Shown: one piece after another, positions 24,759-33,431 of the stretch | Position numbering within the stretch: position 1 is the stretch's first letter | How the letters are laid out: each line of letters begins with the position of its first letter | Source of the DNA: Gimesia aquarii | GTDB taxonomy: Bacteria; Planctomycetota; Planctomycetia; Planctomycetales; Planctomycetaceae | Reading direction: 5' to 3' | NCBI RefSeq assembly: GCF_007748195.1 | Contig: NZ_CP037920.1 | Span: 4,167,800 to 4,231,799 of the forward strand | DNA: 64,000 nt | The notes under the pieces: generated by a model | What the model saw: only the letters and a program-made list of their open reading frames with translations | Told to the model about the DNA's origin: nothing | The model's database searches: none | Made by a program: the position numbers and the translations under genes

Positions 24759-25616
24759 TTAGTTTGTCACAGTCCGTCCTGCCAATGAATAGATCGCCGA
24801 CTGGCACTCAGACATCTTGGCATACCTATCCGAAATTCCTAATACGGTTTCTGCGGCTCCTAGTAACAAAGTACCTGAAGAATTCATCTGGTTACTAATG
24901 CGATCTAATATATCCTTCTTCACATCAGGCTCAAAATAGATTAAAACGTTTCGGCAAAATACAATGTCAAACATTCCCAAATGCTGGAAATCTTCCAGGA
25001 GATTTAAATGCTTCCATTGCATACTAATCCCAGGATCTGCTTTGATCTTCCAGCCTTGTTCATTTTGTTCAAAATATTTCATCAAAAGCTGAACTGGTAA
25101 ACCCCGCTGAACTTCGAATTGGGAATACACTCCCGTTTCGGCTCGATCCAACGCTTTTGAACACAAATCTGTTCCCACGATTTGAATATTCCAATCAGCT
25201 AGTTCCGGAAAGTGCTCCCGCAAGGTCATAACTATGCTGTATGATTCCTGACCATTAGAACAAGCAGAACTCCAGATTCTTAATTTCTGTGTCGCTCTTC
25301 GCTCAGCGATTAGATTTGGCAATATCTCGTTTTTGAGTTCATCAAAAGGACGTCTATCACGAAAGAAAGATGACTCGTTCGTTGTCATCGCTTCCATCAC
25401 GTCTTTTTCCAGAGTTTTGTCTAACCGACTTCTCAAACTGAGTACAAGATCTTCAATGCCGTTCATTCCATGGGATTGTGCCAGAGGAATCAGGCGTGCT
25501 TCCAACAAGTACTCTTTATTCTCACCAAGAGAAAGTCCTGTTGTTTCCAATAAAAAATTTGTAATATATTTATAATCTTCGGGAGACACGAGATCACCAC
25601 TTTCTATTAAGAACAA
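24759..25616 (-). CDS. cheR: CheR chemoreceptor glutamate methyltransferase
   Basis: 285 residues, normal for CheR. An N-terminal helical domain (about 1-75, ending in TTNESSFFRD, the conserved receptor-binding motif) precedes the SAM-binding fold. The SAM motif reads SSACSNGQESYSI, where most CheRs have GEExYS; the GQE form is a common variant. DIVFCRNVLIYF is the motif IV region. It methylates glutamates on the signalling helices of the receptor encoded at 27292-30186 using S-adenosylmethionine. The start overlaps the cheB 3' end by 10 bases, indicating translational coupling. A strong terminator follows. Confidence 0.95.
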   Translation of the reverse strand: MFLIESGDLVSPEDYKYITNFLLETTGLSLGENKEYLLEARLIPLAQSHGMNGIEDLVLSLRSRLDKTLEKDVMEAMTTNESSFFRDRRPFDELKNEILPNLIAERRATQKLRIWSSACSNGQESYSIVMTLREHFPELADWNIQIVGTDLCSKALDRAETGVYSQFEVQRGLPVQLLMKYFEQNEQGWKIKADPGISMQWKHLNLLEDFQHLGMFDIVFCRNVLIYFEPDVKKDILDRISNQMNSSGTLLLGAAETVLGISDRYAKMSECQSAIYSLAGRTVTN

Positions 25617-26650
25617 AGTCGGACGAGTTCAGGAGCAATATTCCTGAGAGGTAAAACCTGATTGGCAATTCCTGCATTTGCAATTGCACCGGGCATTCCC
25701 CAAACAACACTACTCTGTTCATCTTGTACGATAATATAACCTTGACGCTCACTAATTGATTGCGCTCCTTCAATGCCATCGTCTCCCATTCCTGTCAACA
25801 TCACTGCCAGTACGGAACTGCCATACCATTTTGCTGCCGAAGCATACAAAGGGTTAACAGAAGGCCGGCAGAAATGTTCGGGAGCATCTTGATTCAAACG
25901 AATCACCATTCGATCATCTTGTTTATCAACCACCATATGAAAATCGCCAGGAGCGATATAAATACGGCCTCTTTCTATCAGTTCTCCATCTACGGCTTCT
26001 GCTGTAGGTCGCTTTGTTTCACGTTCAATATGCTCAGCCAACGTCTTTGTAAACAAAGGTGGCATATGCTGCGCAATTAATATCGGTAATGAAAAATTTG
26101 CTGGTATTGCAGATAACACCGATTTGAGTGCATTGGGACCACCTGTACTTGACCCAATGACCAACACCATCGGAGTCTTTATAGGCTGCTTTACAACTTT
26201 TGTTGAATGGCTGATCTCACGTGACTGAGAAGTTTGATTACTTCCAGCCAAAGCCTTTATCAAAGGAATCAAAGTTCGTGCAACTTGCTCAATCGCCTCT
26301 GACGCATTTGTCGCAACTGGTTTCTGAACACAACCTGCTGCTCCCAAATCAAGTGCCTGCAAAGTCACTTCGGCTCCTTCACGTGTCAGAGCACTAGCCA
26401 TAATGACCGGAATATCAGGATAATCCTGTTTGAGTTGTTTCAAACAGGCAATCCCATCCATGACAGGCATTTCCACGTCGAGAACAATCACATCAGCCTG
26501 GTTTTTACCAAGCCAGGTGAGTGCCGTCTGCCCATGCATCGCAGTACCAACAACCTCAATGTCACGATCAGAATTGACCGCTTGAGTCATTAATCCTCGA
26601 ATCACAGCAGAGTCGTCGACCAAAAGAACTTTGATGATCGACTGGCTCAC
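25607..26650 (-). CDS. cheB: CheB receiver/methylesterase
   Basis: 347 residues with the standard two-domain layout. The receiver (1-125) has LLVDDSAVIR and the phosphoacceptor in VLDVEMPVMDG, with a later CVQKP lysine. A linker of about 40 residues precedes the methylesterase domain, whose catalytic triad is visible as GSSTGGPN (Ser), AQHMPP (His) and MLTGMGDDG (Asp). It removes methyl groups from, and can deamidate, receptor glutamates and is activated by CheA phosphorylation. The gene overlaps both neighbours by a few bases (cheY upstream by 4, cheR downstream by 10). Confidence 0.96.
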   Translation of the reverse strand: MSQSIIKVLLVDDSAVIRGLMTQAVNSDRDIEVVGTAMHGQTALTWLGKNQADVIVLDVEMPVMDGIACLKQLKQDYPDIPVIMASALTREGAEVTLQALDLGAAGCVQKPVATNASEAIEQVARTLIPLIKALAGSNQTSQSREISHSTKVVKQPIKTPMVLVIGSSTGGPNALKSVLSAIPANFSLPILIAQHMPPLFTKTLAEHIERETKRPTAEAVDGELIERGRIYIAPGDFHMVVDKQDDRMVIRLNQDAPEHFCRPSVNPLYASAAKWYGSSVLAVMLTGMGDDGIEGAQSISERQGYIIVQDEQSSVVWGMPGAIANAGIANQVLPLRNIAPELVRLCS

Positions 26651-27291: not shown

Positions 27292-30186
27292 TTAGATTGC
27301 TCTCATACGTTTCAGGAATGCGGCTGCGGCTTCGTCGAGCTTCACAGATTCCTGTGTTAACCCTTGTGCGGCAGTCTGCATATCATTGGCAGCGGTTCCG
27401 CTATCGGTTGCTGCCTGAGATACGCCTGAAATGTTATTTGTTACTTCAGCTGTACCACGAGCGGCTTCAGCAACATTGCGTGAGATCTCATTGGTCGCTG
27501 CCGTCTGTTCTTCAACAGCACTCGCGATGGTTGTTGAGATTTCATTGATCTTGCCAATGCTATCGCCAATGGAACCAATAGCTGTGACAGCGACATTTGT
27601 CGAGCCTTGAATCGCATTGATTTTTTCGCTGATCTCTTCCGTAGCACGAGCTGTCTGACGAGCCAGTTCTTTGACTTCATTCGCAACCACCGCAAACCCT
27701 TTTCCGGCTTCTCCGGCACGAGCGGCCTCGATAGTTGCATTCAAAGCGAGTAAGTTCGTCTGTTGAGCAATCGAAGTAATTACTTTGACTACCTGTCCAA
27801 TCTCGCTACTGGCATCACCAAGTTCTTTAATCGTGTTATTCGTGCTTTCCGCTTCGTTCACAGCCTGAGACGTCATATGCGACTGCTCTTGTACGTGACG
27901 AGCAATTTCGCTGATCGAGGCACTTAATTCTTCTGCCGCCGAAGAAACCGTTTCCACATTCCGAGTTGCTTCTTCACTGGCTGCGGCGACAACCTGCGAC
28001 TGGCGTGCGGTATTGTCAGCCATATCGGACAGACTCTTCGAGCTGACTTCCATTTCAGTAGCAGAGGAAGTCACCACTCCCACAATGCCCTGAATTTCAG
28101 ATTCAAAATCATCTGCCAATTTCACTTGATCTGTAATGACAGACCAGGAAATCATAGGGCCAATATAATTATTGTCTTTATCCAAGATCGCAGTCGCTAA
28201 AAGATCAAGCGTATGTTCTCCCAGCTTGATTTTCGCACGATGCGGCATATTCGAAGGATCTGCCAGCAAACGCCTTTGCATTTCCGGATTCTTATGGAAG
28301 ATATCAATGCTCTGTCCCACCAGCTGATCCACCGGTTTTGGTAACAGGTGCTCGATCTCTTTTAATTGCTTATAGGAAGCAGGATTCATATAAACAAGCT
28401 CAAAGTCCTTATTTGCTAACAGAACATTGATCGGGATGGTATCCATCATATTCTGAACGCGAGCCATCTCATTTTCGAGTCTAAGTTTTTCTGTGATCAC
28501 TTCCCAGGTCACCATCGGACCAATGTAATTCCCATCCTTATCGGTTACAGCGCTGACCAACAGATCCAGTTTTTCGGGACCGACTTCAATCACAGCTCGT
28601 GAGGGAAGATTGGACGGATCCCCCAAAATCCCCCTTTGATAGGCAGGGTTTTTGTGGAAGATATCAATATTCTGGCCCACGAGATTTTCTGCTTTGACAG
28701 GTAAGAACTGCTGCAGAGCACTCAATTGTTTAACTGAAGCCGGGTTGACGTAGGTAATTTCCAAATCTGTATTCGCCAGCATCACATTGACGGGAATATT
28801 TTCCATCATGTTCTGAACACGAACCATTTCACTTTCGAGTCTAAGTTTTTCTGTGATCACTTCCCAGGTCACCATCGGACCAATGTATTTTCCTTCTCCA
28901 TCAGTTACCGGACTGACCAGTAAGTCCAGTTTTTCGGGACCAACTTGTATCGTTGCCCGCGAAGGAAGATTAGATGGATCATTCAGAATCCCTCTCTGGT
29001 AGGCAGGATCCTTATGGAAAATATCAATATTTTGACCAACAAGATTTTCTACTTTAACAGGTAAAAACTGTTCAAGGCTCTTTAATTTTTCAACCGAGGC
29101 TGGGTTGACATAGGTAATTTCCAAATCTGTATTCGCCAGCATGACATTGACGGGAATATTATCCATCATGCTCTGAACGCGTTCCGCCGCTTCTTCGGTC
29201 GATTTTCTGGTAGTCACATTTTCCCAAACGATGATTGTTCCTGCAGCGGTACCATTTGAAGAATTGGCTTGAGTCAGATTAAGCTCAATATGTTGCTCAC
29301 CTAATTGGGCAGTGATCGACTTTCCACTAGTAGCGCCTTGAATTGCGGATTGCAGTTCGGGAATTTTCTGAAACAGTTGATTAATTGTTCCACCCACAAG
29401 TTGTTGAGGTCCAACTCCCAATTCAGTACTGAGCCCCTCAATCAACTCTTGTCCTTTTTGGTTCAGGTAAGTAACCGTCCCCTCCGTGTTCAAAAACAGA
29501 GTGGCTTGGGGACTGTGTTCCACAATCCCATAAAACTGCTCAAGATTTTGCGACTGTTCAGTAGCCGCGCTCTGATCTGTATTTTGTACTGAATCAATCG
29601 ACATATCACTATTCTCCTTGGGATTTTTGATCTGCTCTTCAGACCTTGATGGTAGTTCGGTTTGTAGTTGGGTTTGAATCTCTGAGGACTCGGGAGTTTC
29701 TTGAACAGACTCCTCATCTTCAAAGTTGGCTCTCTCTGAGCCTGATACAACCGCCGATTGAAGCTGTTTTGCGCGACTAGAGTCTTTGGCACCTTCAATC
29801 ATGATTGTTGCAACTGCTTCGAGTGCCTGACGCCAGCACTCTTCCAGCTCTTCGTTCCATGCCTCTTCAGCAAACTCGGCCAATACACTAAGTAAAGTAC
29901 TCGTAACTGGTGGATAATCATCATCCTGGACTCCCATGTCTCCATGTTGTTTCCCAAGATTTTTCAAGACCTTGGTTAACGCTTCAGGAGTCTCGAGAGA
30001 TTTCAATACAAGCACAAGTGCCTGTATCAACTTACCACGCTGCTCTGAAAAATCAGTATGGGTAAAGTATCGCAACAAATCTGGATAATCTTCGAACAGC
30101 TTTTCATAAAATCGCTCTGCCAACTGATCAGCACGAGGTGCCACCAGTTCAAACGATTCTCGGAGTGCAGTAACATTTAAATCCAC
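27292..30186 (-). CDS. Soluble chemoreceptor: globin, four PAS domains, MCP signalling domain
   Basis: 964 residues with no membrane segment. Residues 1-135 are a globin of flavohaemoglobin type: AERFYEKLF places Tyr27 at B10, FSEQRGKL places Gln49 at E7 and [11 protein letters not shown] gives proximal His81, followed by [13 protein letters not shown] polar linker (about 140-205) leads to a divergent PAS domain (215-335). Three near-identical 120-residue PAS modules (about 335-695) follow, each with NPAS, LVGQ and IDIFHK. The C-terminal 265 residues are the coiled-coil MCP domain, with the conserved tip [20 protein letters not shown] and probable methylation sites either side. It should bind haem and gas (O2 or NO) and feed CheA through CheW. 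HemAT is the closest known idea, but HemAT has a different globin class and no PAS modules. Confidence 0.93.
28107..29183 (-). repeat. Three 360-bp tandem repeats encoding PAS modules
   Basis: Three in-frame units within the chemoreceptor gene recur at exactly 360 bases, as marked by the repeated CATCAT of the MM codons at 29164, 28804 and 28444. Units 1 and 2 share long identical stretches, for example about 50 bases beginning TCGAGTCTAAGTTTTTCTGT at 28476 and 28836. Unit 3 (28107-28466) is clearly more diverged. A fourth, earlier PAS domain lies outside this array. Confidence 0.92.
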
Positions 30187-30231: not shown

Positions 30232-30708
30232 TCATTCAAAATTCAAAATTGTTTCCACATCTAGAATGACAAACAGGCCTTCTTCCAATTGAAAAACACC
30301 AATCGTGACAGACCGCCAATGCGGATCCAGTGTTCTGGGAACCGGTTCCATCGAGCGTCCTGAAACATTGATTACATCCCCCACTTCATCTACCAGCAGG
30401 CTGAATGACTCTTCTCCCATCCGAGTCACGACATTCATGGAATTATCGTCTTCCAGATCAGGCAAACCCAATCGTTTTCTCAAACTGACTGCTGTAACAA
30501 TCTGCCCTCGAAGATTTAAAAGTCCTTTAATCTCAGCTCTTGAAAGAGGTGTGGGAGAAATGACTTGTTCGGTAAGTACTTCCTGGACCATGTTGACTGG
30601 CACGCCGAGTAACTGGCCATCAACCCGGAACGAAACGTACTGGTTTGAATAATCGAGTTGCGATTCCATTCCGTGACTTGAATCGGTTTCCATTTCCGCT
30701 GTGCTCAT
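30232..30708 (-). CDS. cheW: CheW coupling protein
   Basis: 158 residues from the ATG at 30708, which overlaps the cheA stop as ATGA; the frame opens further upstream but only inside cheA. A short N-terminal tail precedes the CheW SH3-like fold: [20 protein letters not shown], then [15 protein letters not shown] and [10 protein letters not shown] with the C-terminal VILDVETIL. CheW joins the receptor tip to CheA's P5 domain in the signalling array. The receptor gene follows 46 bases later. Translational coupling with cheA suggests matched amounts of the two proteins. Confidence 0.94.
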
Positions 30709-33431
30709 GCATTTACTCCTGCGTCTACTGCCATTTGGGCAAAGCAACCATCCAAACAAGAAATCAGTTCATGCGAATTGAATTTAACCAGAAACTGATC
30801 AAATCCAACATCTGCCGCTCTTGACTGGTTAGCAGAACTATTTGAAGACGTTAAAGCGAGGGTGCTAATATTTTTGGTAGTCTCCTGACCTTTGAGCCAT
30901 TCACAAAATTCAAAGCCATCCATCATGGGTAAATCGATATCTGTGATTACTGCGTGAAACTGTGAATCTCTTTCCAAAAGCTCCATCGCACTAATACAGC
31001 TATCACTGGTTACAACTGAATAGCCTTCGGTCTCGAGAGCTGTTGCCACTAACTGGCGGAAGAACATGGAATCATCAACCACTAACACTCGAAACGTTTT
31101 TTTGTCTTCCACACTCTCAAACCAGTTTGGTGTAGAACGTGTAACATAATACTGTGTATCAATGACATCGATCGCATTTTTAGCAATGATTGCTGTTCCC
31201 AGGACTCCTGGTCGATCTGACTGCATACGAATTACAAATTGTTCATCAATAATGTCTTTAATTTCATTGACCATGAGCCCCATTGATCGATTGTTATCTG
31301 AGAACACAATTACCGGCTGTGGATCAATTGGCTCGCCACCTCCGTATCCAGTTCCTTCCACAGAGAGCAGTGGAAGTAGGTCCTCACGATATTGAACAAC
31401 CTTTTGGCCACCATTGTGTTCGATACTAGCCTGTGGAAATTCTTCCAGACGTGCAACCAGCGAGAGTGGAACCGCCATTGTCTCATCTTCCCCAACACTG
31501 AAGAGCAGCATGCTGATTGTATCACTATCAGCACCTGTATTTGCCTCTTCCGCGGTCGATTGAGAATGGGCAGCACTACCACCACATTTATTAAAGATCC
31601 CACCTACATCCAGAATCATCACAACACTGCCATCTCCTAGAATTGTGGTGCCTTGGTAAAGCCCAATGTTTTTTAAGAGTCGACCTACAGGCTTGACTAC
31701 AATTTCTTCGGTGTCAAAAATCCGGGACACAATAAGTCCAAACTGATCTTCGCCCACCTGAACTACAACGATGTTTGTATCATCCAAATCATCGTCGTCT
31801 AATTTCGTCTCTTCGAGACCAAGTACTTCGTTTAAATGGACCAGAGGCAGCAATCGATCACGTAAACGGAAGACCTCTTTATTGTGAATAGTTTCGATTT
31901 TCTCACGATCTTCAGCAGACAAACGAACCAGTTCAACGACCCCCAACTGAGGTATCGCGAACGGCTGTCCGCCACTCTCTAATACCAGGGCAGAGACAAT
32001 CGCCAACGTCAGAGGAATTTTGATTCGGACCACAGTCCCTTTTCCAATTTTGGAAGAGAGATCAACGGTTCCCCCAATTTTTTCGATCTGGGTGCGAACA
32101 ACGTCCATTCCAACACCACGACCAGAAACAGAACTGATTTTTTCAGCTGTTGAAAAACCAGCATGAAAAATCATTGAATAGATATGACTATCCGAAACAC
32201 TATTAGCATCTGCTTCATTAATTAATCCCTGAGCGATAGCTTTTGCCAAAACCTTATCTCGGCTGATGCCTGCACCATCGTCCTGGATTTCAATAATAAC
32301 GTGACCACCTTCGTGATACGCATTTAAATGAATCGTTCCAGATTCTGACTTTCCATTTGCTTTACGTTCTTCCGGTGATTCAATTCCATGATCGGCTGAA
32401 TTCCTGACCATGTGAGTCAGAGGGTCCTTGATGGCATCCAAAACCGTTCGGTCCAACTCGGTTTCGGCCCCAGTCATGACCAATTCGATATGCTTATTTG
32501 TAACTTGCGATAAGTCGCGAACTAAACGGGGTAACTTGTTCCATGCATTCCCAATCGGCTGCATGCGTGTTTTCATGACCCCTTCCTGCAAATCTGTCGT
32601 TACTCGATTTAAGAGTGTGATCGGAGCCGCATATTTGGACTCTTCATCACCGCGTGCCAATTGCAACAATTGATTCCTTGTTAAAACTAATTCACCAACC
32701 AAGTTCATCAAGCTATCAACAACGTTGACGTTCACACGAATCGATAGATCTGCGACACTGACCTTTGATGATTTTGCAGCTGCATCTCCTTCAGAAGTTG
32801 ATGATGGGGTTGCAGCAGGCGTTGGAGGCGGAGTCGGAGGAGGTACAGGAGTTTCTGATTCAGTCTCAGCTTCTATTTCAGAACTGGGGGAGACAGATTC
32901 GGTAACCTGTTCTTCTGATGAAACACCTTCAGTTCCTGCTGCTTCTGCCTGTGAGGTTTCGGAAGATTCTGTTGAATTCGATTCTGTATCGGCAGACGAT
33001 GATGGCTCAGGCTCAGATTGTTCTTGACCAGAAGAACTGTCTGAAGATCCAGAAGCACATTTTGCTAATTGATCCAACATATCAATTAACGCGGAATTGT
33101 CTGTTGTTGGTTCTTCACCAGTGGCTTCAAGACCTTCCAGCAGTGATTTGATCTGATCTATACCCTCGAGTACTAATGAGATTGCACCAGGGGAAATATC
33201 CAGTAACCCTTCTCGCATCTTACCAAGGACATTCTCGGCGGAATGGGCCACAGACCCCAAATTGGTAAGACCTAGAAACCCACATGTCCCTTTAATCGTG
33301 TGGATCGTACGAAAGATACTGGCAATCAGATCAGCATTTTGAGGATCTTTTTCCAGTTCAACGATTTCTGAGTCTAATTGCCCTAAATTTTCCCAGCTTT
33401 CTGCCAAGAATTCCTGCAGAATATCGTCCAT
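30705..33431 (-). CDS. cheA: CheA histidine kinase with two CheW-like domains and C-terminal receiver
   Basis: 908 residues. The Hpt domain (1-105) has the phosphorylated histidine H44 in [16 protein letters not shown] long acidic and proline-rich linker (about 120-225) replaces a typical CheY-binding P2. The dimerisation helices and HATPase domain follow ([17 protein letters not shown], then [18 protein letters not shown] and [10 protein letters not shown]). Two CheW-like domains lie near 480-620 and 645-775, where most CheA have one. The last 120 residues are a receiver with [11 protein letters not shown] and the phosphoacceptor in [11 protein letters not shown]. The hybrid form recalls FrzE and Pil-Chp CheA proteins and may act as a phosphate sink. 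It heads the cluster cheA-cheW-receptor-cheY-cheB-cheR. Confidence 0.95.

What the first reader, a model, noticed from the sequence alone, without database searches (positions are those of the whole stretch)
27292..30186. Soluble chemoreceptor with flavohaemoglobin-type globin, four PAS domains and MCP signalling domain
The first 135 residues align by eye with the flavohaemoglobin globin fold, including Tyr27 (B10), Gln49 (E7) and proximal His81. No FAD/NAD domain is present. No membrane span exists. Known globin-coupled receptors (HemAT) use a different sensor globin and have no PAS array. With four PAS domains between the globin and the signalling tip, this could be a multi-input cytoplasmic oxygen or NO sensor. 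The PAS modules may bind further ligands or act as spacers. The receptor is the only one in the cluster, which suggests it is the dedicated input of this CheA.
Basis: partly seen in the sequence, partly recalled or inferred. Interest (0 to 1): 0.75.

Follow-up and report, generated by a model that had tools for sequence, protein, structure and literature searches.

The report
Chemoreceptor predicted to carry four haems
In this Gimesia bacterium the single CheA chemotaxis kinase is encoded next to one cytoplasmic receptor that joins a globin to three haem-type PAS domains, and in some close relatives it is the only chemoreceptor in the genome, so their steering system looks dedicated to sensing oxygen-like gases rather than food.

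Summary
Minus-strand ORF 27292-30186 (964 aa, GTG start) is a soluble globin-PAS(x4)-MCP inside a cheA-cheW-mcp-cheY-cheB-cheR run, in a genome of the planctomycete genus Gimesia. The globin is real (Pfam 56 bits; AlphaFold pLDDT 92; best PDB match Hell's Gate globin I). It groups with single-domain F globins, apart from flavohaemoglobins. B10 Tyr, CD1 Phe, E7 Gln and F8 His are invariant in 22 relatives.

PAS1 lacks the His. Predicted load: four haems per chain.

Genome census: one CheA, two MCPs. The other MCP lies beside an Aer-type PAS protein. In three near-complete Gimesia genomes this receptor is the only MCP found; all carry fliG.

Globin plus PAS plus MCP is not unprecedented (Sharma 2018, PMC6194562), and similar fusions occur in Pseudomonadota, probably arisen separately. 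Best reading: a direct O2 (possibly NO) receptor driving aerotaxis. Haem binding, ligand and response sign are inferred. New variant of a known kind.

The parts
27292..30186 (-). Globin-PAS1-PAS2-PAS3-PAS4-MCP soluble chemoreceptor, 964 aa, GTG start
29779..30186 (-). Single-domain-F-type globin, aa 1-136: Tyr27 (B10), Phe41 (CD1), Gln49 (E7), His81 (F8), Tyr91 (G5)
   Evidence: Pfam, PDB phmmer, invariant columns, AlphaFold pLDDT 92 and Foldseek to 3s1i
29944..29946 (-). His81 codon, predicted proximal haem ligand of the globin
   Evidence: alignment
29542..29778 (-). Linker between globin and PAS1, aa 137-215
   Evidence: no domain match
29209..29523 (-). PAS1 (aa 222-326), lacks the haem His (Gln273 at that position), keeps Trp321
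28831..29202 (-). PAS2 (aa 329-452), Aer2-type haem-PAS, His391 and Trp441
28471..28845 (-). PAS3 (aa 448-572), Aer2-type haem-PAS, His511 and Trp561; about 82% identical to PAS2
28111..28485 (-). PAS4 (aa 568-692), Aer2-type haem-PAS, His631 and Trp681
27295..28098 (-). MCP signalling hairpin, aa 697-964; no HAMP, no CheR-tethering pentapeptide
30705..33431 (-). cheA: Hpt, dimerisation, HATPase, CheW domains and C-terminal receiver; only CheA of the genome
30232..30759 (-). cheW, only stand-alone cheW of the genome
26647..27075 (-). cheY
25607..26650 (-). cheB
24759..25616 (-). cheR

Best explanation
The gene encodes a cytoplasmic, direct gas-sensing chemoreceptor predicted to carry four b-type haems per chain: one in an N-terminal single-domain-F-type globin and one in each of three Aer2-type PAS domains. 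O2 (possibly also NO or CO) binds the haems. The signal passes through the PAS array and the helices after PAS4 straight into the MCP hairpin, with no HAMP in between, and sets the activity of the co-encoded CheA/CheW, with CheY as output to the flagellar motor and CheR/CheB for adaptation. The result is aerotaxis or gas taxis. Shown here: domain identity, conservation of ligand residues, operon linkage, and the small receptor set. Inferred: haem loading, ligand, sign of the response, and different affinities of globin and PAS haems.
For: Globin family and fold with invariant haem-pocket residues. PAS3, taken as the query, hits only Aer2 haem-PAS structures in the PDB (6ceq 1.7e-19, 3vol 2.4e-15, 4hi4 6.4e-14), and the FHK His and the Trp match Aer2 H234 and W283 by count along the 4hi4 chain; all three of PAS2-4 keep both, as do 74/75 (His) and 75/75 (Trp) such domains in relatives. 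The PAS model matches 6ceq at 1.5 A and 4hi4 at 1.6 A. Single CheA and a FliG. Same gene order, cheA-cheW-mcp-cheY-cheB-cheR, wherever the Gimesia locus is fully covered, and in G017. Aer2 proteins with two or three PAS-haems are reported O2 sensors, all three PAS binding haem in V. vulnificus (review PMC13401364).
Against: No biochemical data. Aer2's HAMP domains and C-terminal pentapeptide are absent. The number of haem-PAS varies from one to three inside the genus, so the full array is not essential. The Glu135 position of E. coli Hmp is not conserved in the globin, so ligand chemistry may differ.
Confidence: 0.8

Rival explanations
1. The PAS haems are the sensors and the globin is an accessory: an O2 or NO store or scavenger that buffers or protects the PAS haems, not a signalling domain.
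For: Globin is tied on by a roughly 80-residue linker with no domain match; the PAS4-MCP part aligns best between relatives, and several relatives with the same PAS-MCP core have no globin (L039-L041, L043).
Against: Globin and pocket are retained in every Gimesia copy of the receptor with complete sequence; no reductase domain is fused, so catalytic NO turnover would need a partner.
Confidence: 0.3
2. The receptor senses NO (or CO) rather than O2 in vivo.
For: F globins and haem-PAS bind several diatomic gases; Tyr B10 and Gln E7 also occur in NO dioxygenases (established knowledge of the families).
Against: The Trp kept in all 75 haem-PAS domains is the residue that stabilises bound O2 in Aer2 (recalled knowledge). 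The second input of the genome is an Aer-type PAS, pointing to energy and oxygen taxis.
Confidence: 0.15
3. The system controls something other than the flagellar motor (attachment, cell cycle switch, c-di-GMP), gas sensing being the input.
For: The role of Aer2 in native Pseudomonas aerotaxis is debated (PMC13401364). CheA carries a receiver domain. Planctomycetes alternate swarmer and sessile cells (general knowledge).
Against: It is the only CheA in almost every Gimesia genome that has one, and all have FliG, so it is the natural candidate for motor control.
Confidence: 0.15
4. The globin or PAS pockets are degenerate and the domains are only spacers or dimerisation modules.
For: PAS1 has lost the His.
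Against: Ligand residues are invariant or nearly so across two phyla in globin and PAS2-4.
Confidence: 0.05

Closest known systems
Aer2 of Vibrio (PAS-haem chemoreceptor; 6ceq, V. vulnificus tri-PAS-haem) and of Pseudomonas aeruginosa (3vol, 4hi4)
   Same: Cytoplasmic MCP with tandem haem-PAS; His and Trp of the haem pocket kept; NCBIfam Aer2 model is the top hit (393 bits, below its cut-off of 1200).
   Different: N-terminal globin, no HAMP domains, no pentapeptide, extra PAS1.
PAS + Bac_globin + MCP receptors listed by Sharma et al. 2018 (Cc_4972 of Corallococcus; one in Rubinisphaera brasiliensis)
   Same: Globin, PAS and MCP in one cytosolic chemoreceptor, proposed for aerotaxis.
   Different: Reported there with Pfam Bac_globin (PF01152); haem nature of the PAS domains not described in the passages read; whether the Rubinisphaera protein is an orthologue was not tested.
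HemAT / globin-coupled sensors (Protoglobin family)
   Same: Globin-MCP aerotaxis receptor plan.
   Different: Here PF00042 F-type globin (56 bits) outranks Protoglobin (28 bits); PAS array between globin and MCP.
Hell's Gate globin I and other single-domain F globins
   Same: Best sequence and fold match to the globin domain.
   Different: Those are stand-alone proteins; here fused to a receptor.
Globin-haemPAS-HAMP-MCP receptors of Pseudomonadota found here (L049, L111, L131-L133)
   Same: Same N-terminal globin plus haem-PAS logic.
   Different: HAMP_2 present; xWEEF/WKEF pentapeptide in L111 and L131-L133; globins of L131-L133 probably fused independently (p-AU 0.014).

Membership tests
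Aer2-type PAS-haem domain | Eta-helix His ligand (H234 of P. aeruginosa Aer2) | tested here: met
   His391, His511, His631; PAS1 fails (Gln273)
Aer2-type PAS-haem domain | I-beta Trp (W283) | tested here: met
   Trp441, Trp561, Trp681
Aer2-type PAS-haem domain | binds b-type haem | not testable with these tools
   needs protein
Aer2 receptor (gammaproteobacterial Aer2-like family, PMC7184735) | HAMP domains between PAS and MCP | tested here: not met
   no HAMP match in Pfam
Aer2 receptor (gammaproteobacterial Aer2-like family, PMC7184735) | C-terminal x-[HFYW]-x-x-[HFYW] pentapeptide | tested here: not met
   C terminus is FLKRMRAI
Aer2 receptor (gammaproteobacterial Aer2-like family, PMC7184735) | 36H signalling domain | tested here: inconclusive
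   seven-residue indel in each arm against Tsr and L049; class not assigned
F-family globin | PF00042 match, Tyr B10, Phe CD1, Gln E7, His F8 | tested here: met
Flavohaemoglobin | FAD and NAD reductase domains; within FHb clade | tested here: not met
HemAT / globin-coupled sensor (Protoglobin) | Protoglobin-family sensor globin | tested here: not met
   PF11563 only 28 bits against 56 for PF00042
MCP chemoreceptor | MCPsignal hairpin with conserved tip and linked cheA/cheW | tested here: met

The most novel reading that the evidence does not exclude
Some Gimesia species run a natural one-receptor chemotaxis system whose sole input is a receptor with several haems, so aerotaxis (gas taxis) is their only taxis; the genus otherwise adds little beyond a split Aer-type redox receptor, meaning no extracellular nutrient sensing through MCPs. 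Globin and PAS haems of different affinity give one receptor a wide oxygen range.
Probability: 0.45. Interest if true: 0.78.

Novelty: new variant of a known kind. Interest (0 to 1): 0.58.

Why it matters
It joins two haem sensor families known separately in aerotaxis (globin and Aer2-type PAS) in one chain. It also gives a complete flagellar chemotaxis pathway with one or two receptors, both of oxygen or energy type. That would be a simple natural system for asking how several haems are integrated by one receptor and what oxygen taxis alone buys a planctomycete swarmer cell.

Tried and rejected
Generic-spacer reading of the PAS array: rejected for PAS2-4 by the Aer2 matches. Flavohaemoglobin origin: not supported by the tree. 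A single origin of all globin-MCP fusions: disfavoured (p-AU 0.014). The first globin tree read several minus-strand loci on the wrong strand and was discarded. Some long open frames with globin hits (L108, L109, L134) have the globin at the C-terminal end and no receptor match; not counted. Heptad class of the MCP was not settled. PDB search of PAS1 gave nothing. A notebook entry that says 15 of 16 genus genomes carry the receptor is a miscount; it is 14 of 16.

Full report
Observation. The ORF lies on the minus strand (27292-30186, 964 aa). Pfam finds Globin, PAS and MCPsignal domains and nothing of a reductase. No stretch is hydrophobic enough for a membrane span.

Globin. phmmer against the PDB gives Hell's Gate globin I and the globin of HGbRL, then Ralstonia flavohaemoglobin. 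AlphaFold with 22 relatives gives pLDDT 92, and Foldseek ranks HGb-I first (TM 0.86/0.91, 1.1 A). Thirteen columns are invariant in 22 globins spread over two phyla; they include Tyr27, Phe41, Gln49, His81 and Tyr91. In the tree all receptor globins fall with single-domain globins, separated from flavohaemoglobins with 100/100 support. Holding all receptor globins together is rejected at p-AU 0.014, while the planctomycete set plus those of G101, L049/L050 and L111 may be one clade (p 0.65), so the fusion probably arose at least twice. The sampling is of one genome per species, drawn evenly from large phyla.

PAS array. PAS3 matches only three PDB sequences, all Aer2. PAS2, PAS3 and PAS4 each keep the haem His and the Trp; PAS1 keeps only the Trp. 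Over all homologues collected, 75 domains score at least 60 bits; 74 keep the His and 75 the Trp. PAS1-like domains vary at the His position. PAS2 and PAS3 are 82% identical in protein and 79% in DNA, a recent-looking duplication. Within the genus the number of haem-PAS ranges from one to three, and a PAS_9/PAS_3-type domain replaces one unit in several species. The PAS model has pLDDT 78 but low pTM (0.33), so only single-domain folds are used; these match 6ceq (1.5 A) and 4hi4 (1.6 A).

Context. The run cheA-cheW-mcp-cheY-cheB-cheR has short or overlapping spacers, except a 216-base gap after the mcp, and recurs in every Gimesia locus with full coverage and in G017. G173, another genus of the family, has the same receptor plan beside cheW and cheA.

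Genome census. G000 has one CheA, one stand-alone CheW, two MCPs and one FliG. The globin-MCP is found in 14 of 16 other genus genomes, one of them a partial match at a contig end; the two without it, G006 and G015, are fragmented and also show no CheA. Of the 14 genomes of the genus with a CheA match, 13 have one and G003 has two. G007, G011 and G014, 100% complete by estimate, have this receptor as their only MCP match, and all have FliG. Most others have one more MCP, which in the nine further loci I fetched, and in G000, lies beside a PAS protein that matches E. coli Aer (8dik, 6.7e-33). G003 instead has a second che cluster with a PAS-MCP. So the receptors examined in the genus are all of PAS or globin type or paired with a PAS protein; for the sensor-less second MCP the pairing with the Aer-type PAS is inferred from adjacency. 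I recall the Campylobacter CetB/CetA pair as a parallel; not tested.

Mechanism. O2 on the PAS haems and globin is the most likely signal, passed from PAS4 into the MCP helices without HAMP. In V. vulnificus Aer2 all three PAS bind haem and have different roles (PMC13401364), so unequal roles are expected here. The place of the globin in signalling is the least certain part.

Novelty. Sharma et al. (PMC6194562) had found PAS + Bac_globin + MCP in seven proteins, one planctomycete, and proposed aerotaxis. A library search for Aer2 with globin domain returned two papers; the passages I read from them did not describe this fusion. What is added here: the Aer2-type haem-PAS identity, the F-type globin, the occurrence of similar fusions in Pseudomonadota, and the oxygen-or-energy-only receptor set.

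Noticed in passing
L068:8659-10530 (own genome, C1:6613658-6615529): Split Aer: a 172-aa protein matching the E. coli Aer PAS (8dik) directly upstream of a 414-aa soluble MCP without sensor domain; pair conserved in nine other Gimesia loci.
   Followed up: partly
L110:1691-3193: Planctomycete Ser/Thr kinase with a C-terminal F-type globin (Pkinase 138.8 bits, Globin 42.5 bits).
   Followed up: no
L049:7926-10598 and L111:5257-8076: One gammaproteobacterial MAG genome (G415) carries two different globin-haemPAS-HAMP-MCP receptors.
   Followed up: partly
L143:6821-14750: G003 alone in the genus has a second che cluster with a three-PAS MCP and its own CheA; the second MCP of most other species was not found in it.
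   Followed up: partly
L069:5931-6509: Second globin of the window's genome, 193 aa, weak PF00042 match (22.1 bits).
   Followed up: no
window 28471-29202: PAS2 and PAS3 are 82% identical; repeat number differs between Gimesia species, suggesting expansion and loss of haem-PAS units.
   Followed up: partly
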